From Novosphingobium aquimarinum (GTDB lineage Bacteria > Pseudomonadota > Alphaproteobacteria > Sphingomonadales > Sphingomonadaceae): 64,000 nt of DNA. This document shows, piece after piece, positions 43,416 to 51,944 of the stretch. The stretch covers positions 277,230 to 341,229 of the forward strand of contig NZ_WRPO01000003.1 in assembly GCF_009746585.1 (NCBI RefSeq), given 5' to 3'. Numbering within the stretch: the first letter of the stretch is position 1; each line of letters starts with the position of its first letter. A model generated the notes under the pieces. The model was not told the DNA's origin. It saw nothing but the letters and a program-made list of their open reading frames with translations, and searched no databases. Position numbers and translations under genes: made by a program.

Positions 43416-44324
43416 TCAAGCCCCTTCGAGCAACGTTCTCGCGGCCCCTTGCGTCGACTGCGCGATCACCCGGTAGTATTCGGAATAGGCGGCCCCCGAA
43501 CGCCAGACGGCCGCCATAGAACGCGTTGCCGACCAGTCTTCGACGACCAGACGGCGCACCATGTCTTCCCCTCCCACTTCCGAGCGTAAGTATAGTTCGG
43601 GAAGAATGGCGAGCCCGATGCCCGATCCTGCCATCTGCCGCAGGGCGTCCAGGCTAGTGCCTTCGTAATCTCGCAAGAGCTCCGCGTTCAGATCCTCGCA
43701 GACCCCGGAAACTTGGCGATGGAAGTGGTGACGGCGGTCCAGGCTCAGGATTCCGGAGCCCGCGAGGTCGGCCTTTCGCAGAGAGGACTTTGCGAAAAGC
43801 GGGTGATCGGGCGCCGCCACGAGATGCAGACGCTCACGAAACAGCGGCTCGATCTCCAGATCGGTACCGGCCACGGGCAGCGGCGAAAGCACCATATCGA
43901 GCCCACCCTTGCGCAATTCGGCCAATTGATCGTCGGGTATGCCCTCGCGCATGTGCAGGCGCATCATCGGATGATCGCGGTGCAATTGCGCGACCACCGG
44001 GGGCAGCAGGTAGGGCCCGAGCGTGGGCGTCACGCCGAACCGCACCGTGCCCGCCATCCCCGAATTGCTGCGCTGGGCTAGGCCGCGCAGATCGCTGACC
44101 TCGAGCAGGATCCGGCGTGCGCGCACCGCGATTTCCCGGCCCACAGGAGTGAGTTGCACCGGGGTCTCGCCGCGTTCGATCAGCATGACGCCAAGACGGG
44201 CCTCCAACGCCTTCAATTGCTGGCTGAGCGTCGGTTGCGAGACGTGAACCGCGGCGGCGGCCCTGCCAAAGTGTCGAGCGTCCGCGACGGCGACAAAGTA
44301 TTGTAGTTGCTTGATCGTCGGCAT
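43416..44324 (-). CDS. OxyR-like LysR regulator without the peroxidatic cysteine
   Basis: This 302-residue LysR-type regulator has the winged HTH at residues 1-60 (IKQLQYFVAVADARHFGRAA, VSQPTLSQQLKALE) and an OxyR-like sensor domain with TPTLGPYLLPPVVAQLHRDH and DYEGTSLDALRQMAGSGIGL. Where OxyR has HCLRDQ, this protein has HHFHRQ, so the reactive Cys199 is a histidine, although the second cysteine position (SGVC) is kept. It is unlikely to sense peroxide by disulfide formation. The ATG at 44324 (MPTIKQLQYF) was chosen over one 17 codons upstream. It is divergent from the DUF465/nhaA genes with an OxyR-type site between them. Confidence 0.88.
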   Translation of the reverse strand: MPTIKQLQYFVAVADARHFGRAAAAVHVSQPTLSQQLKALEARLGVMLIERGETPVQLTPVGREIAVRARRILLEVSDLRGLAQRSNSGMAGTVRFGVTPTLGPYLLPPVVAQLHRDHPMMRLHMREGIPDDQLAELRKGGLDMVLSPLPVAGTDLEIEPLFRERLHLVAAPDHPLFAKSSLRKADLAGSGILSLDRRHHFHRQVSGVCEDLNAELLRDYEGTSLDALRQMAGSGIGLAILPELYLRSEVGGEDMVRRLVVEDWSATRSMAAVWRSGAAYSEYYRVIAQSTQGAARTLLEGA

Positions 44325-44338
44325 CAGCCTCACTTCCG

Positions 44339-44353
44339 ATAGGCGCAGGCTAT
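44339..44353. promoter_or_regulatory. OxyR-type ATAG-N7-CTAT element
   Basis: ATAG at 44339-44342 and CTAT at 44350-44353 flank seven bases, and one more base pair on each side extends the dyad to GATAG-N7-CTATC. This is the half-operator of the OxyR consensus. It lies 15 bp before the LysR start and 78 bp before the DUF465 gene, where it could serve autoregulation and control of the divergent genes. Confidence 0.6.
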
Positions 44354-44430
44354 CGAATGGGCCTCCAACTTTCAATTGGCCTAATCAGCGGGATTCCGGT
44401 AATGATCGTCAGCAGAAAGGAGACGATTTC

Positions 44431-45851: not shown

Positions 45852-46828
45852 TCGCAGCGTTGTTGGCCGTCGCGGGCGGCCTCATCGCGCTCGTGATCGG
45901 GGGAGAACTGCTGGTCCGCGGCGCCGTCAGGCTGGCGGAGAAGCTCGGGGTCAGTGCCCTCGTCATCGGTCTGGTCATCATCGGCTTCGGAACGTCGCTG
46001 CCCGAACTGGTGACGAGCGCCGAGGCGGCGTTGGCGGGATCGCCCGCCATCGCCTGGGGCAATATCGTCGGCTCCAACAACCTCAACAGTCTGCTGATCC
46101 TGGGCGCCGCAGCGCTCGCCGCGCCGATCACGATAACCGCGCCCAACCGTTATCGCGATCCGGCGGTCGCGCTTGCGGCCGCGGGCGCGTTGACACTGCT
46201 CGCGGTGTTCCAGATTGGCGGCTGGTGGACTGGCGCTGCGCTCCTCGCCTGCCTGATCGCCTATATCGCCTGGTGTTATCGCGAAGAGCGGCTCGTTGCA
46301 CCGGACACCATCCATAACGCCCCGAACGATCGCGGTCGCGCGCTCGAACTGGCAGATACGGCCTTGCACGATGCGCAGGGCTCGTGGGCGAAGCCGGTGG
46401 TGCTTCTTATCGGTGGCTTTGCGCTGCTGGTGTGGGGTGGAGGCCTGCTCGTCGGCGGCGCGATCGACCTTGCCCTGCTTGCGGGTCTGGGAGAAGCGTT
46501 CATCGGGCTTACCATCGTCGCGCTGGGCACGTCGCTGCCCGAACTCGTCACATCCGTCATCGCCGCGCGGAAGGGGGAGCCGGAACTGGCGTTCGGCAAT
46601 GTCGTCGGCTCGAATATCTACAATATCCTCGGGATCGGCGGCGCGACCCTGCTCCTCGCCCCAGCTCCCATTCCGCAGGACTTGCTACCACTCGACATCG
46701 GAGTTGTCCTTGCGAGCGGGCTGGTGATCCTCGCCCTGGCGCTGAGGCGCCGGATCTCGCGCATGGCGGCTCTGGGGCTGCTGGCAGCCTACGCAGTATA
46801 TCTCGGCATCGTCATAGCGAACGCCTGA
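45848..46828 (+). CDS. CaCA-family Ca2+(Na+)/H+ antiporter (YrbG-like)
   Basis: This 326-residue protein has ten membrane segments and the two inverted alpha repeats that define the Ca2+:cation antiporter family: GFGTSLPELVTSAEAALAG near residue 44 with GNIVGSNNLNSLLILGAA, and ALGTSLPELVTSVIAARKG near residue 222 with GNVVGSNIYNILGIGG. The ATG at 45848 overlaps nhaA by four bases, so the two antiporters are co-translated. Its last 144 bp overlap the convergent TolC-like gene. Confidence 0.93.
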   Translation: MIAALLAVAGGLIALVIGGELLVRGAVRLAEKLGVSALVIGLVIIGFGTSLPELVTSAEAALAGSPAIAWGNIVGSNNLNSLLILGAAALAAPITITAPNRYRDPAVALAAAGALTLLAVFQIGGWWTGAALLACLIAYIAWCYREERLVAPDTIHNAPNDRGRALELADTALHDAQGSWAKPVVLLIGGFALLVWGGGLLVGGAIDLALLAGLGEAFIGLTIVALGTSLPELVTSVIAARKGEPELAFGNVVGSNIYNILGIGGATLLLAPAPIPQDLLPLDIGVVLASGLVILALALRRRISRMAALGLLAAYAVYLGIVIANA

Positions 46829-48232
46829 TGGCACGGGCTCCAGGCCGAGCTGCTCGCGGTCCACGGTCGCCGCGATCAGATCCGCGCGGGCCGAAGCGCG
46901 GCGATACTCGGCCTCGATCTGGCGCAAGCGCGCGTCCGCCGCGCTTTCCTCGCGCAGATTGACGACCAGGACTTCGCTCGCGCCGAGCGTGAAGCGACGC
47001 CGTTCGGCCGAGGCCATGCGTTGGGCAAGGCGGGTCTCATCCGCGGCCAGCGCCACGAGCTTGTCGGTCGCGCGCACTTCGATGGCCAGTTCGTTCACTT
47101 CGACCAGGATCCGATCCTCGATCAGTCGCCGCCGCGCCGCGAGCGCGCGCGCTTCGGCCTCTGCTTCGGCAATGCGACCGCGGGCCTTGCGCCGCTGAAG
47201 CGGAAGGCTGAACTGAAAGCCGACATAACCCTCGGTCGGTGTGCGGGTGCTGCCGCCCAGCCCCACCGGGCCGACATCCTTGGACAGCTCGGCCTGGAGA
47301 TCGAGCCTCGGCTTGAGATCGTTCTCGGCCAGACGAAGGCGGGCTTCTGCCTGATTGAGCCTCACCAGAACCGCATTGAATTCGGGGCGCGACAGGCCGT
47401 TGCGCAGCAGCGCATCGATCTGCGGCAGATCAAAACTCGGCAGGCTGGCAGGCAAGCGGTCCGCCGAGGGCACGTAAGGTTCACCGTTCGCGTCCCTCAG
47501 GTAGAACGACAGCGCGTTGGCCGCGGAATCGAGCTCGCGCTGGGCACGGACCAGCAGGGTTTCGCGGCGCACGATGTTCTGCTGGTTCTCGGTGCCGAGG
47601 ATGCCGGGACGCGCACCAAGCTGGATCTGCCGTTCGATCGACGTCTGCCGTTCCGCCGCGAGCCCGAGCAAGTCGCGGTACAAGCCGACGCGCATCCCGG
47701 CCGCGACCCATTCCTGATAGGCGGCGATGGCGCGGCGCTGCACGTCGATCGCCACCAGATCGCGATCGAGCCGCGCCAGTTCGACATCCAGTGCGGCGAG
47801 TCCGACTTGCGTGCGCCGATCGTCGGTCACTCGGTCGCGCAGCAGCGAGAACACAGTGCCGACCCGCGCTTCGCCAAACCGATTGGTATAGGCCTTGCCG
47901 TCGTAGACCGGGAATTCGCCGCGGGAGACGCGATAGCCGCCATAGAGCTTCCCGCCATTGCTGGTCAGCGGGCGGGTGATGTCGCCATCGAGGTAGGTGC
48001 CGTCGTAATAGCCGAGAGCGCGGGACTTCATGTCGATATCGACGACCGTGTCGAAGGCGCCATAGGCCGAAAGCTGCTTTCCCTGCGCGGCCTGTTCCTT
48101 GTTGATCGCCTCGATGATCGCCGGCGAATGGCGCGCCGAAGACTGCAGCACGTCCTCCAGCAGCAACGGCTCCTCGCCGAACGCCGCGTGCGGATAGAGC
48201 ATTGCCAGCAACCCGAAAACGATCCGGATCAC
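46685..48232 (-). CDS. TolC-type outer-membrane efflux protein
   Basis: This 515-residue protein has a signal peptide (MIRIVFGLLAMLYPHAAFG) and two long OEP helical repeats separated near residue 240, typical of the trimeric outer-membrane channel used in type I secretion and efflux (RFGEARVGTVFSLLRDR, GYVGFQFSLPLQRR). About 48 residues past LGLEPVP are low in order (QPQSRHARDPAPQRQGEDHQ) and are encoded antisense to the CaCA antiporter, so the stop may have been displaced. ATGA joins it to the HlyD-like gene. Confidence 0.88.
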   Translation of the reverse strand: MIRIVFGLLAMLYPHAAFGEEPLLLEDVLQSSARHSPAIIEAINKEQAAQGKQLSAYGAFDTVVDIDMKSRALGYYDGTYLDGDITRPLTSNGGKLYGGYRVSRGEFPVYDGKAYTNRFGEARVGTVFSLLRDRVTDDRRTQVGLAALDVELARLDRDLVAIDVQRRAIAAYQEWVAAGMRVGLYRDLLGLAAERQTSIERQIQLGARPGILGTENQQNIVRRETLLVRAQRELDSAANALSFYLRDANGEPYVPSADRLPASLPSFDLPQIDALLRNGLSRPEFNAVLVRLNQAEARLRLAENDLKPRLDLQAELSKDVGPVGLGGSTRTPTEGYVGFQFSLPLQRRKARGRIAEAEAEARALAARRRLIEDRILVEVNELAIEVRATDKLVALAADETRLAQRMASAERRRFTLGASEVLVVNLREESAADARLRQIEAEYRRASARADLIAATVDREQLGLEPVPSGVRYDDAEIYCVGCQQPQSRHARDPAPQRQGEDHQPARKDNSDVEW

Positions 48233-49296
48233 TTGCTGCTCTCCGCCGTGGTGCCACTGCCGCTGCCGGAACCGGTTCCCCCTCCCTCAAGCGCGGGCTG
48301 ACGAAATTCGAGCGGGAAGTCGTTCAATTGACGCCAGAGCTCGTAACCTACGGTCACCGTTTCCATCTGGATCCAGCCGCGCACTTTGGCGCCCAGGCGG
48401 ACATAGTCCCTCGGCGGCCACGGCCTTTTGCCCGGAGCCGGTTCGACCAGGACGCGAAACAGTCCGTTGGGCTGCGCCGAGGGATCGATCGTTCGGACAC
48501 GGCCATCGAACATCCCTTCGGCGACCGACGGCCAGCCGCTGAACTGGATCGCGGGCCATCCCTCGAACGCCAGCCGGACCCGTCGCCCGGGATGGACGAG
48601 CGCGATGTCCCTGCCATCGACCATGAGTTCCGCGACCCGCACCGGCTTTTCGGGCGCGAGCATGGCAAGCACGTCCCCGGCGCTGACCAGGCTGGCCCCG
48701 GCTGAGGCATTGATCGACTGGATGCGCCCCGCGCGCGGCGCCCGCACCGTTTGCGCGGACTGGCGGTTCAGGCTCACATCCAGGCGATTGAGCTTGGCCC
48801 GCGCCTCGGCCAGCTTGGCCCGGTGATCGGCCACCTTGATCTGAGTGGATTCGTAATCCCGCCGGGCGACCAGTCCTTCGGACAGGAGCTGACGCGAACG
48901 ATCGACATCGATCTGCGCGACCGCCATCGCTTGCCGTGCGGCGGCAATCTCCGCTTCGACCTGCGCCCGCTCGGCCGCCAGGCGACTGAGCAGCGACGGA
49001 TCGTTATCCACCAGGCGCGCGATCGGAGCGCCCTTCTCCACGCGGTCGCCATCCTGAACGTACCACTGTTCGACTCGTCCGGGGACGAGCGCGGTTACGG
49101 TCTGCACCCGGTCCTCAGGATTGAGAGCGACGATCTGTCCGGTCCCCGCAGAGGTCTGGACCCACGGAACGGTGAAGAGAATGATGCTGACGATGATGAT
49201 CGTAAGGCCGATCATCCAGGCCAACACTCGCGTCAACCGCGGGGGCTTGAGCTTGGCCAGCGTCCGGAACTGGGCGAAATTTTCCGGGTTAGGCAT
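48229..49296 (-). CDS. HlyD-type periplasmic adaptor
   Basis: This 355-residue membrane-fusion protein has a basic cytoplasmic start, one membrane segment near residues 27-48 (VLAWMIGLTIIIVSIILFTV), a biotinyl-lipoyl half (GRVEQWYVQDGDRVEKGAPI), a coiled-coil hairpin (about 110-200), the second lipoyl half (VRAPRAGRIQSINASAGASL) and a beta-barrel. It bridges an inner-membrane exporter and TolC. The ATG at 49296 lies inside the end of the ABC gene (8-bp overlap) and was chosen over far upstream starts. A Gly/Ser-rich C-terminal tail follows residue 335. Confidence 0.9.
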   Translation of the reverse strand: MPNPENFAQFRTLAKLKPPRLTRVLAWMIGLTIIIVSIILFTVPWVQTSAGTGQIVALNPEDRVQTVTALVPGRVEQWYVQDGDRVEKGAPIARLVDNDPSLLSRLAAERAQVEAEIAAARQAMAVAQIDVDRSRQLLSEGLVARRDYESTQIKVADHRAKLAEARAKLNRLDVSLNRQSAQTVRAPRAGRIQSINASAGASLVSAGDVLAMLAPEKPVRVAELMVDGRDIALVHPGRRVRLAFEGWPAIQFSGWPSVAEGMFDGRVRTIDPSAQPNGLFRVLVEPAPGKRPWPPRDYVRLGAKVRGWIQMETVTVGYELWRQLNDFPLEFRQPALEGGGTGSGSGSGTTAESSK

Positions 49297-50968
49297 CGGA
49301 GCGTCCTTGTTCGCTCGCGACAGCGACCAGTTCGGCGGCGGAGTCGCAGAAGCGCTGTTCGCGCCGCCCCATCCAGAGGTATCTGTCGCGGCGCGAGGCT
49401 TCGGGTCGACGCGTGAATTGCAGCACCGTGGTTCCATGCTCGCGCAAGGCGGCAAGCGAGGCATCGAGGCATTCGGGCGCAAGCAGGTCGTATAATTGCG
49501 TTAGGCACAGAACCCGCGGACGAGCCAGCAACGCGCCCGCCAGCTTGAGCGCCATCAGTTCGCCGACCGACAGCGGCGAGCCAGTCGTGGAAATTACGGC
49601 ATCGAACCCATCCGCCAAGCTGGCGATCGTGTTCGACAGACCGACAATCTCCACCGCCTCGCTGATATCCCCGCCCTTATCGAAGGATGACAGTTCCAAG
49701 AACTCGCGGATCGTCATTTCGACGAAGGAGGCGCGGGCCAGGACCATGACTTCCGAGCGCAGACGGAAAATATCGAAGTGGCCGATATCGCTGCCGCCAA
49801 CGAGCACGAGGCCGCGTTCGGGGGTCTCGTGACGCTTGAGCAGCAACCTGAGGCAGCGCTCCACCCCAGGCGCCGCCACGACCGCCACCTGCTCACCGCT
49901 GGCGAGGCTGAAATCGAGCTTGAACTGGGAGTACTCGGCGTTTCTCAGCTTGATCGTGCCGTCAGCCGGCCCGCGATCGTCGCCGCGCGGCTCGTCCTGC
50001 TGGATGTCCCAGAACAGCGAGAGTTCTTCCAGTCCGGCGGCCAGGTCGTAGAACGCTTCGAGATAGGGCCCGAACTGCGCGATGCCGTAGAACACACTCG
50101 ACAGGATCAGTTCGGCCGCGACCAGTTGCCCGATCGAAAGCTGCCCCTGAATGATCAGCCACCCCCCAAGCGCCAGCAAAGCGGCACTGGCCAGGGCGTA
50201 GATCAGCAGCAGGCAAACGGTTTGGGAAAAGGTGTAGCGAAAGTGCCTTTCGTGCGCCCTGACCCAGCCTTCGGTCATGGCCTCCGAGCGGGTGATCGCG
50301 TAGTCCAGATGCCGCGCCGACTGATAGAAGCCGTTCGATCCGCCAACGCTTTCCAGCCAATGTGCCGTCGCGTGCTTGGCGTGGCTCTTGGCAATGGCCG
50401 TCCTGACCGCACCGTTGGCCCAGATCTGCCAGACCAGATACAGCAGGAGCATCAACAGCGCGTTGAACGCCAGGAAGAACGGGTGGTAGAAACTGGTGAC
50501 GACGAGCCCCACCACACCTTGCAGCAGGATCGTAAAGCTGCCGATCAACAGGCTGGGCAATGCCTTTTGAACCGTCATCAAATCGAAATAGCGGTTGAAC
50601 AGAGCGCCCTGTCGCGCGTCGTTGAAGAACGGATTTTGCGCGTGCACTTCGCGCAAGGTGATCTCGGCCACGATGCGCCCGAACAGCCGGCGTTCGAAAA
50701 GCGCCATGAGGTGGACGCGAAAGGCGCTCAGCACGCCAACGAGCAGCAGCAGCAGCAGCAGCATGGCAGACAGCGTGAACAGTGGCGCGGTCAGAGCCGT
50801 GTTCGCCACCGAGTTGATCAGCAATTGCACCGAGATGGGTGTGGCGAGCGACAGCAAGGAAATCGCCAGGCCATAGACGAGCGCGAGTCTGAGAAATGTG
50901 GCGTCGGGGGCAAGGATCAGTCCGATCCATCGCCCAAGATCCCGTACGCCATAATCTGGTTGTGACAC
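49289..50968 (-). CDS. ABC-exporter-like protein with a degenerate ATPase domain
   Basis: This roughly 559-residue protein has an ABC type I exporter membrane domain (six segments, residues 20-300) and a C-terminal domain laid out like an ATPase. Every catalytic motif is lost: Walker A reads VVAAPGVERCL (no GKS/T), the signature LSGGQ reads LSVGE, Walker B reads VLCLTQLYD (no D-E), and the switch histidine position reads FTRRP. The frame is intact and co-translated with HlyD and TolC genes, so this is not simple decay. I use GTG at 50968, preceded by GGGAAG; GTG at 50989 is the alternative. It may be powered by a second ABC subunit elsewhere or serve a non-ATPase role. Confidence 0.82.
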   Translation of the reverse strand: MSQPDYGVRDLGRWIGLILAPDATFLRLALVYGLAISLLSLATPISVQLLINSVANTALTAPLFTLSAMLLLLLLLVGVLSAFRVHLMALFERRLFGRIVAEITLREVHAQNPFFNDARQGALFNRYFDLMTVQKALPSLLIGSFTILLQGVVGLVVTSFYHPFFLAFNALLMLLLYLVWQIWANGAVRTAIAKSHAKHATAHWLESVGGSNGFYQSARHLDYAITRSEAMTEGWVRAHERHFRYTFSQTVCLLLIYALASAALLALGGWLIIQGQLSIGQLVAAELILSSVFYGIAQFGPYLEAFYDLAAGLEELSLFWDIQQDEPRGDDRGPADGTIKLRNAEYSQFKLDFSLASGEQVAVVAAPGVERCLRLLLKRHETPERGLVLVGGSDIGHFDIFRLRSEVMVLARASFVEMTIREFLELSSFDKGGDISEAVEIVGLSNTIASLADGFDAVISTTGSPLSVGELMALKLAGALLARPRVLCLTQLYDLLAPECLDASLAALREHGTTVLQFTRRPEASRRDRYLWMGRREQRFCDSAAELVAVASEQGRSDA

Positions 50969-51045: not shown

Positions 51046-51060
51046 ATAGTTTTTGTCTAT
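51046..51060. promoter_or_regulatory. OxyR-type ATAG-N7-CTAT element before the exporter operon
   Basis: ATAG at 51046-51049 and CTAT at 51057-51060 flank seven bases (TTTTTGT). It overlaps the stop of the second OxyR-like gene and lies about 80 bp before the exporter start, an ideal place for that regulator to control the operon. AT-rich sequence on both sides fits a promoter. Confidence 0.6.
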
Positions 51061-51944
51061 CAGGCGACACACTTCAGCAATTCGGCGAGCGACTGAAAGG
51101 TGGGCGAAAGACCGGCTCCCTTGCGCCACACCAGCCCGACTTCCCGGTAGAAACGCCCGCCCGCGAAGGGTTTGACCACGACATCGTTTCCGCGGACTTC
51201 CTGCCGGGCATAAAGTTGCGGAATGATTGCCAGCCCCATACCGAGACCCGCCATCTGCCGGATCGCATCGAGGCTCGTCCCTTCGTAGTCACGCCGGACA
51301 TGCGCGCCTGCTGCCTGCGCAAGGGTCTGTATCTGTTCGCTGAGGCGATACTGTGGGAGCAGCGTCAGGAGCCCCCGCCCTTCCAGATCGCTGATTTCGA
51401 TCGCCTCTTTCGCAGCGAGCGGGTCTTCAGGCGCCATCGCCACGAGAAGAGGGTCGCGAAACAGTCGCTCGACGTGAAGGCCGGGCTCGCCGATCGGCAA
51501 TTGCACCAGCACGACATCGTGTTCGGCTTCCGTGAGCATCCGGATCAATTCGCTCGGCAAGCCTTCGCGGACGTGAACCCGCAAGTTCGGCTTCGCGCGA
51601 TGCAATTCGGCCACGAGTTTGGGAAGCAGATAGGGACCAAGCGTCGGCGACACCCCGAGCCGGAGCGTTCCCGTCCCTTCCGCCTGATCGCGCTGAGCGA
51701 GCGACATGAAGGCGTCGACTTCGGCCAGCACCATGCGCGCGGCGAGGACGGCTTCGCGCCCCAATGGCGTCATGATCGCTCGCGTGCCGCGCTCTGCCAG
51801 GGGGTAGCCGAGCAGATCCTCGAGATTGCGGATCGCTTGCGAGAAACTGGGCTGCGACACACCCTCCGCCGCAGCGCCTCTGGAGAAACCCTCGTGCTCG
51901 GCAAGCGCCACGAGGTAACGTAACTGGCGTAAGGTCGGCTCCAC
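51060..51944 (-). CDS. Cysteine-free OxyR-like LysR regulator
   Basis: This 294-residue LysR-type regulator has the HTH at residues 1-60 (LRQLRYLVALAEHEGFSRGA, VSQPSFSQAIRNLE) and a sensor domain sharing SPTLGPYLLPKLVAELHRAK and DYEGTSLDAIRQMAGLGMGL with the other OxyR-like regulator in this window. The region of the OxyR cysteines has none (LLPQYRLSEQIQTLAQAAGA); the only cysteine is near the extreme C-terminus. It is thus not a classical peroxide sensor. It lies directly upstream of the exporter operon on the same strand, its stop overlapped by an OxyR-type site. Confidence 0.88.
   Translation of the reverse strand: MEPTLRQLRYLVALAEHEGFSRGAAAEGVSQPSFSQAIRNLEDLLGYPLAERGTRAIMTPLGREAVLAARMVLAEVDAFMSLAQRDQAEGTGTLRLGVSPTLGPYLLPKLVAELHRAKPNLRVHVREGLPSELIRMLTEAEHDVVLVQLPIGEPGLHVERLFRDPLLVAMAPEDPLAAKEAIEISDLEGRGLLTLLPQYRLSEQIQTLAQAAGAHVRRDYEGTSLDAIRQMAGLGMGLAIIPQLYARQEVRGNDVVVKPFAGGRFYREVGLVWRKGAGLSPTFQSLAELLKCVA

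What the first reader, a model, noticed from the sequence alone, without database searches (positions are those of the whole stretch)
49289..50968. Type I secretion operon built around a pseudo-ATPase ABC protein
The ABC-exporter-like protein keeps its six-helix membrane domain and full length but has lost Walker A (VVAAPGVERCL), the signature (LSVGE), Walker B (VLCLTQLYD) and the switch histidine (FTRRP). The gene has no frameshift and is translationally linked to intact HlyD-like and TolC-like genes. Known type I exporters need ATP hydrolysis, so this may be a new kind of exporter, one that borrows a partner ATPase, or a membrane anchor with another energy source.
Basis: partly seen in the sequence, partly recalled or inferred. 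Interest (0 to 1): 0.72.

Follow-up and report, generated by a model that had tools for sequence, protein, structure and literature searches.

The report
Exporter with a dead ATP engine
This bacterium carries an unbroken ABC-transporter gene that has lost its ATP-burning residues, and relatives in distant bacterial groups share that loss and the two export-pipe genes beside it, so it is likely an export pump predicted to run on something other than its own ATP, perhaps a flow of protons.

Summary
The ABC gene (49289-50968, minus strand) is intact and overlaps its HlyD gene, which overlaps TolC. It lacks the Walker A lysine, Q-loop Gln, first signature Gly, Walker B Asp/Glu and switch His. This is not strain decay: the 120 nearest proteins (own included) all lack these, other residues are conserved in their place, and dN/dS is 0.01-0.18 in four Sphingomonadales pairs (0.43 for the NBD of the pair holding the window's gene). 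Relatives with the same three genes occur in Bacteroidota and elsewhere in Pseudomonadota. Of 360 homologues examined, 346 keep none of four key catalytic-site residues; most Bacteroidota and Betaproteobacteria still have a P-loop, so hydrolysis was apparently lost before ATP binding. What unites them is the membrane domain: Glu replaces the usual TM6 Asn in 360/360, and this domain is more conserved than the NBD, the reverse of 37 intact exporters. The model keeps the full ABC exporter fold. Best mechanism, inferred: a tripartite exporter powered by ion (proton) flow past TM6 acids, as in SbmA, with the NBD left as scaffold. A borrowed ATPase partner or a gated conduit remain possible. Seven searches of open-licence papers showed no description that I recognised.

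The parts
49289..50968 (-). ABC exporter-type protein without catalytic residues (559 aa): six-TM domain plus degenerate NBD
   Evidence: ORF; Pfam; model; motif counts
50000..50968 (-). Membrane domain (residues 1-323): the part shared across the family, more conserved than the NBD
50111..50113 (-). E286 in TM6 (Asn in 26 of 37 intact exporters; Glu in 360 of 360 family proteins examined)
50057..50059 (-). E304 in TM6 (acidic in 359 of 360 family proteins, 0 of 37 intact exporters)
50045..50047 (-). D308 in TM6 (acidic in 338 of 360 family proteins, 1 of 37 intact exporters)
49292..49963 (-). Degenerate nucleotide-binding domain (residues 336-559), ABC fold retained in the model
49853..49876 (-). 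Former Walker A (residues 365-372, AAPGVERC); Lys replaced by Arg371
49736..49738 (-). Former Q-loop Gln (A411 here; Gln in 0 of 360 family proteins)
49559..49573 (-). Former signature (residues 466-470, LSVGE)
49496..49513 (-). Former Walker B (residues 486-491, VLCLTQ); Asp and catalytic Glu lost
49409..49411 (-). Former switch His (R520)
48229..49296 (-). HlyD-like periplasmic adaptor (355 aa), start overlaps the ABC stop by 8 bases
46685..48232 (-). TolC-like outer-membrane channel (515 aa), start overlaps the HlyD stop by 4 bases
51060..51944 (-). LysR-type regulator, 91 bases upstream on the same strand; a LysR gene also adjoins the operon in some relatives, so it may regulate it

Best explanation
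The window encodes an unbroken ABC-exporter-type protein that has lost its ATPase residues, in a conserved ABC-HlyD-TolC operon, and it likely forms the inner-membrane pump of a tripartite exporter that is predicted to be driven by proton (or other ion) flow past acidic residues in its sixth membrane helix instead of by its own ATP hydrolysis. Shown by calls: the loss of the catalytic residues, its sharing by the homologues examined, purifying selection in the pairs tested, operon conservation, the ABC fold in the model, and the TM6 glutamate. Inferred: that the protein pairs with itself, that HlyD and TolC dock to it as in known tripartite pumps, that the dead NBD serves as a dimer scaffold or gate, and that E286 (with E304 and D308) carries the coupling ion as the glutamate ladder does in SbmA. 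The substrate is unknown; a small molecule or peptide is my guess.
For: Catalytic residues lost in the 120 nearest proteins (own included); of 360 examined in three branches, 346 keep none of Q-loop Gln, first signature Gly, catalytic Glu and switch His, and no protein keeps more than two. Other residues conserved in their place. dN/dS 0.01-0.08 (TMD) and 0.06-0.18 (NBD) in four pairs. Order ABC-HlyD-TolC in 30 of 31 loci, own included; the 31st ends at a contig edge. TM6 Glu286 in 360/360 proteins and 31/31 loci, 0/37 intact exporters; acid at 304 in 359/360 and at 308 in 338/360, against 0/37 and 1/37. Eighteen residues shared by the Sphingomonadales and Bacteroidota branches but present in at most 10% of intact exporters all lie in the membrane domain. 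NBD more conserved than TMD in 642/666 pairs of intact exporters but 0/78 and 0/91 pairs of the two dead branches. TMD-only tree: 33 dead members on one side of a branch against 30 intact ones, 100/99. Precedent: SbmA, an ABC-derived TMD driven by protons through conserved glutamates (PMC13316013, passages).
Against: No proton coupling, transport or substrate has been measured. E286 could bind a cationic substrate instead. E304 and D308 may lie in the cytoplasmic half of TM6, outside the membrane core; among the 13 divergent Sphingomonadales rows position 304 is not acidic in 3 and 308 not in 1, and 308 is Gly in 22 of 120 Betaproteobacteria-branch proteins. Two branches mostly keep a P-loop (110/120 and 116/120), so ATP binding may still matter to them, which a purely ion-driven pump would not need. 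H162, conserved in two branches, is Ser in 119/120 of the third. The family keeps the NBD, unlike SbmA. Long branches in the trees. The NBD of the pair with the window's gene has dN/dS 0.43.
Confidence: 0.4

Rival explanations
1. Heterodimer: the dead protein pairs with an ATP-competent ABC exporter encoded elsewhere and supplies one half of the pump, as in TM287/288 or TmrAB.
For: One-sided degenerate sites are common in heterodimeric exporters (PMC7756269, passages); the NBD fold is retained and residues at the former motif positions are conserved. Seventeen other carrier genomes show 3-7 further PF00664 matches each, the own genome three.
Against: No second ABC exporter hit beside it in the 31 loci that had a hit (BLAST with the window's protein at 1e-4, which can miss distant exporters). 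In the own genome the other three are, by my reading of sequence and neighbours, a T1SS transporter with its own HlyD and TolC, an MsbA-like and an Atm1-like protein. That T1SS transporter has a match at E <= 1e-60 in 9 of 17 other carriers, at 27-35% identity.
Confidence: 0.2
2. Gated passive conduit: the membrane domain is a channel or facilitator opened by substrate, or by ATP binding without hydrolysis in the branches with a P-loop, and HlyD-TolC lead the substrate out down its gradient; CFTR-like in spirit.
For: P-loop mostly kept but catalysis lost in the Bacteroidota and Betaproteobacteria branches; the TMD is the conserved part.
Against: The P-loop is lost in the window's branch, in the four f195 members and in a few Bacteroidota, so nucleotide gating cannot be the common mechanism.
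Confidence: 0.2
3. A residual or unconventional ATPase: substituted residues still bind and split ATP slowly.
For: The NBD is conserved and folds confidently; Bacteroidota carry Asp at the catalytic Glu position in 105/120.
Against: In the window's branch no Walker A Lys, Q-loop Gln, Walker B Asp, catalytic Glu or switch His in 120/120; in HlyB the Glu and His form the catalytic dyad (PMC8277102 section 38).
Confidence: 0.08
4. Decaying gene in this strain.
For: The loss of motifs itself, and the looser constraint on the NBD than on the TMD.
Against: The 120 nearest proteins share the loss, dN/dS is below 1 in all six pairs, and the operon is intact.
Confidence: 0.02

Closest known systems
HlyB and other type I secretion ABC transporters (T1SS) with HlyD and TolC
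   Different: No catalytic residues; TM1 starts near residue 8, so no room for a C39-like N-terminal domain; all three proteins far below curated T1SS cut-offs; TM6 Asn replaced by Glu.
SbmA / SLiPT peptide transporters
   Same: ABC-type six-TM domain that does not use ATP; conserved membrane glutamates (PMC13316013, passages).
   Different: SbmA has no NBD and imports; this family keeps a folded dead NBD and sits with HlyD and TolC. Proton coupling here is inferred only.
Heterodimeric exporters with one degenerate site (TM287/288, TmrAB, BmrCD)
   Same: Same fold (TM-scores up to 0.84, 0.86 and 0.82); degenerate NBD motifs.
   Different: There one of two sites keeps catalysis and a partner subunit exists; here no partner gene was found adjacent and all the motifs are degenerate.
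MacAB-TolC and other tripartite pumps
   Same: The adaptor scores best with the RND-type adaptor model (TIGR01730 89.5 bits, just below its cut-off of 94.9, against 69.3 for the T1SS HlyD model), and there is a TolC-type channel.
   Different: MacB has a distinct ABC fold (PMC5985334, start of abstract in the listing) and is an ATPase.
CFTR and SUR proteins (recalled)
   Same: ABC-fold proteins that do not work as ATP-driven pumps.
   Different: Animal proteins with at least one ATP site; no tripartite partners.

Membership tests
Type I secretion permease/ATPase (TIGR01846, TIGR03375, TIGR01842) | Score above the curated cut-off | tested here: not met
   97.3 vs 725.55, 95.3 vs 693.1, 51.7 vs 510.15 bits
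Type I secretion permease/ATPase (TIGR01846, TIGR03375, TIGR01842) | Catalytic ATPase motifs (Walker A, Walker B Asp-Glu, signature, switch His) | tested here: not met
   0/120 for Walker A Lys, first signature Gly, Walker B Asp, catalytic Glu and switch His in the window's branch
Type I secretion system | Adjacent HlyD-type adaptor and TolC-type channel genes | tested here: met
   Pfam HlyD_3 and OEP; order kept in 30 of 31 loci, the other cut by a contig end
Type I secretion system | Adaptor and channel of the T1SS subfamilies (TIGR01843, TIGR01844) | tested here: not met
   69.3 vs 208.65 and 17 vs 225.15 bits
Type I secretion system | Cognate secreted protein substrate in or near the operon | tested here: inconclusive
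   No shared substrate-like gene noticed in the seven annotated neighbourhoods read; not searched systematically
Type IV ABC exporter fold | Six long TM helices fused to an NBD with the ABC fold | tested here: met
   AlphaFold2 mean pLDDT 84.8; PCAT1, HlyB and TmrAB among the top folds
Heterodimeric ABC exporter with one degenerate site | Adjacent gene for an ATP-competent partner subunit | tested here: not met
   One ABC hit per locus in the 31 loci with a hit, BLAST at 1e-4; distant exporters could be missed
Heterodimeric ABC exporter with one degenerate site | Physical pairing with an ATP-competent subunit encoded elsewhere | not testable with these tools
   Needs co-purification
SbmA-like peptide transporter (SLiPT) | No NBD and extra TM0 helices | tested here: not met
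   NBD fold present; six TM helices only
SbmA-like peptide transporter (SLiPT) | Sequence kinship to SbmA | tested here: inconclusive
   TMD profile against PDB sequences up to E 10 lists 48 sequences, none named SbmA
SbmA-like peptide transporter (SLiPT) | Proton-coupled transport through conserved membrane glutamates | not testable with these tools
   E286 in 360/360 is suggestive only

The most novel reading that the evidence does not exclude
A widespread family of tripartite exporters in which a full-length ABC exporter has become a secondary, proton-driven pump: the TM6 asparagine-to-glutamate change gave it an ion pathway, hydrolysis was lost first and ATP binding later, and the NBD survives as a structural fossil that holds the dimer.
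Probability: 0.33. Interest if true: 0.9.

Novelty: new variant of a known kind. Interest (0 to 1): 0.72.

Why it matters
ABC exporters are textbook primary pumps. A family in two phyla that keeps the whole fold and the HlyD-TolC partners while discarding hydrolysis, and in some branches ATP binding, makes the question 'can an ABC exporter change its energy source?' testable with natural intermediates. SbmA shows an end point without an NBD; this family could show the road there. The conserved TM6 glutamate gives a single residue to test. It also means that dead NBDs are being labelled 'ABC transporter ATP-binding protein' in public records.

Tried and rejected
Decay in this strain: rejected. 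An adjacent second ABC exporter gene: none found in the 31 loci with a hit. A constant companion exporter: the own T1SS transporter has no match at E <= 1e-60 in 8 of 17 carriers; other exporters were not followed one by one, and the PF00664 search at E <= 1e-5 did not list the family member itself in four of the 17 (G015, G026, G028, G040), so it misses divergent ones. A conserved substrate or processing gene beside the operon: none noticed in the seven annotated loci read. SbmA as nearest relative in the PDB sequences: not listed. Papers on this family: none recognised in the listings of searches, which cover open-licence full text only. Papers seen: PMC13316013 and PMC7756269 as passages, PMC8277102 as passages and section 38; the others as listings.

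Rows left out: L009 (frame broken in a metagenome assembly); L077 (Caballeronia; no match to the window's ABC protein at 1e-4). The 37 intact exporters were those among the fetched relative loci with recognisable Walker A and LSGGQ-like strings, so they are intact by choice. In the second tree two long-branch intact exporters and five more were left out and the Bacteroidota and Betaproteobacteria branches thinned to 8 each. Only the best 120 of 1931, 6417 and 1176 proteins were examined; P0001 is the window's own protein, P0121 the query, and P0241 is identical to the query over 97% of it. The 37 further genomes (E 1e-41 to 1e-48) match from residue 145 or later, mostly the TM6 and NBD part, and were not counted as members. 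Some loci are near copies (L006/L007, L085/L086). The first ORF picks were wrong for several loci and were redone. In one search a string search flagged LSGGQ-like strings in two proteins (P0263, P0322); their signature columns read PLSTIQ and PLSHAQ, and the counts used are those. In the Walker A Lys count the Bacteroidota 119 include proteins without a full P-loop.
Full report
WHAT IS THERE. The finding's ORF is real: 49289-50968 on the minus strand, GTG start, 559 aa, no frameshift. Pfam sees the ABC membrane domain above its cut-off (34.9 against 28 bits) and the ABC ATPase domain only below its cut-off (20.5 against 25). Its stop overlaps the start of the HlyD-like gene by 8 bases and that gene's stop overlaps the TolC-like start by 4 bases. 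A LysR-type regulator lies 91 bases upstream on the same strand. Residue numbers below are for the 559-aa protein.

WHAT IS LOST. Against 37 exporters chosen for recognisable motifs, the window's branch (the 120 nearest proteins, own included, 61-100% identical) has the canonical residue in 0 of 120 at the A-loop Tyr, Walker A Lys, Q-loop Gln, first signature Gly, Walker B Asp, catalytic Glu, D-loop Asp and switch His. The second signature Gly is kept in 116. In HlyB the Glu and His form the catalytic dyad (PMC8277102, section 38 read). The region has not gone random: P465, L489 and D494 are 120/120, K475 and T519 119/120, R521 and P522 118/120.

IT IS SELECTED, NOT DECAYING. By Nei-Gojobori counts on six pairs, four pairs of other Sphingomonadales give dN/dS 0.01-0.08 for the membrane domain and 0.06-0.18 for the NBD. 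The pair that holds the window's gene (L001-L005) gives 0.13 and 0.43, and the last pair 0.16 and 0.18. Only two pairs have dS below 0.35; in the others dS is 0.7-1.1, so their values are rough. The NBD is under looser constraint than the TMD in every pair. The operon order ABC-HlyD-TolC holds in 19 of 20 Sphingomonadales loci (own included; the 20th is cut by a contig end), 4 of 4 Bacteroidota loci and in all 7 loci (one TolC seen by Pfam only). A LysR gene adjoins in 7 of the 20 (L079, L013, L014, L085-L088) and in L109, in varying orientation.

HOW WIDE THE FAMILY IS. The gene is patchy: 9 of 41 related genomes, own included, at E <= 1e-137; 11 of 398 Pseudomonadota genomes, own included, with a membrane-domain profile at E <= 1e-22, five of them outside the class; and 15 Sphingomonadales records among 49 plasmid records matched. 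More distant relatives with the same three genes are in Bacteroidota. A further branch is named from Methylobacillus, Methylotenera and Nitrosomonas (Methylobacillus and Nitrosomonas are Betaproteobacteria); its operon was read in one locus, L112.

A GRADED LOSS. Over 120 examined proteins each (Sphingomonadales / Bacteroidota / Betaproteobacteria branch), the canonical residue is kept as follows: Walker A Lys 0 / 119 / 120; Walker B Asp 0 / 1 / 113; catalytic Glu 0 / 2 / 6; first signature Gly 0 / 4 / 0; switch His 0 / 3 / 0; Q-loop Gln 0 / 0 / 0. A full P-loop string is present in 0 / 110 / 116. Counting Q-loop Gln, signature Gly, catalytic Glu and switch His together, 346 of 360 proteins keep none, 13 keep one and one keeps two. 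So the catalytic set is gone or nearly gone in all three branches, while the P-loop survives in most of two. Walker A is also lost in the four members of a further Pseudomonadota family (f195) and in the Bacteroidota member Aureibacter, the latter apparently a separate loss, since Aureibacter lies inside the Bacteroidota branch.

WHAT UNITES IT IS THE MEMBRANE DOMAIN. Eighteen residues are near-invariant in both the Sphingomonadales (13 rows) and Bacteroidota (14 rows) branches and present in at most 10% of 37 intact exporters; all eighteen lie in the membrane domain. Not all of them extend to the Betaproteobacteria branch, where for example H162 is Ser and S159 mostly Ile. E286 is Glu in 360 of 360 proteins and 31 of 31 loci, against Asn in 26 of 37 and Glu in 0 of 37 intact exporters. 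Two more TM6 positions are acidic: 304 in 359 of 360 and 308 in 338 of 360, against 0 and 1 of 37; the most divergent Sphingomonadales show exceptions. Domain conservation is inverted: the NBD is the more conserved domain in 642 of 666 pairs of intact exporters, but in 0 of 78 and 0 of 91 pairs of the two dead branches (50 of 7140 and 9 of 7021 in the larger sets); pairs are not independent. A tree of the membrane domain alone puts all 33 dead members on one side of a branch against 30 intact ones (100/99), with long branches as a caution.

STRUCTURE. The AlphaFold2 model (113-sequence alignment) has mean pLDDT 84.8, six TM helices, and an NBD with block means mostly 88-96. Among the best solved folds are PCAT1, TM287/288, HlyB (TM-score 0.87) and TmrAB. 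So the predicted protein keeps the whole exporter shape.

MECHANISM. Shown: loss of catalytic residues, selection in the pairs tested, operon, predicted fold, TM6 glutamate. Inferred: a homodimer docked to HlyD and TolC, with energy from ion flow. The argument is that the family conserves its membrane domain above all, has an acid there in place of an amide, and shed hydrolysis; SbmA shows that an ABC-type membrane domain can be proton-driven through glutamates (PMC13316013, passages read). Against it stand the retained P-loop in two branches and the absence of any measurement. Partner-ATPase and gated-conduit readings therefore keep real probability. The own genome shows three other PF00664 proteins, which I read from sequence and neighbours, without a family scan, as a T1SS transporter with its own adaptor, channel and a candidate repeat-rich substrate, an MsbA-like and an Atm1-like protein.

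WHERE IT BELONGS. It may work like a tripartite exporter but is not a member of T1SS by curated models, not a heterodimeric exporter by gene layout and not an SLiPT, since it keeps an NBD. I recognised no description of the family in the listings of seven literature searches of open-licence papers; subscription papers were not searched.

Noticed in passing
46685-46828: The TolC ORF runs 144 bases into the convergent ORF that ends at 46828 (exchanger-like by my reading, not scanned); related Sphingomonadales TolC proteins align over about 420-475 of its 515 residues, so its C-terminal tail looks unusual.
   Followed up: no
43416-44375 and 51060-51944: Two LysR regulators, 45% identical, flank the segment. 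The one at 51060-51944 scores best with OxyR below its cut-off and has a single cysteine, at its very C-terminus; OxyR's redox pair is recalled.
   Followed up: partly
G000 contig C12, locus L094:3335-10011: The same genome seems to hold a separate type I secretion cluster: TolC-like, ABC with intact motifs, HlyD-like and a 452-aa repeat-rich candidate substrate (read from the ORFs, no family scan).
   Followed up: partly
L015 (Aureibacter) and P0125 (Fulvitalea): Within Bacteroidota, where the P-loop is mostly kept, these two sister proteins have lost it: apparently a separate loss of ATP binding.
   Followed up: partly
e.g. P0130, P0132, P0270, P0312: Several family members carry the source name 'bacteriocin/lantibiotic exporter with double-glycine peptidase domain' although at about 550-610 aa they have little room for a peptidase domain.
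   Followed up: no
L009:459-1601: One metagenome-assembled homologue is broken in frame after about residue 345, either an assembly error or a pseudogene.
   Followed up: no
L010-L014: The operon sits on plasmids of 57 to 762 kb in several Sphingomonadales, which fits its patchy distribution.
   Followed up: partly
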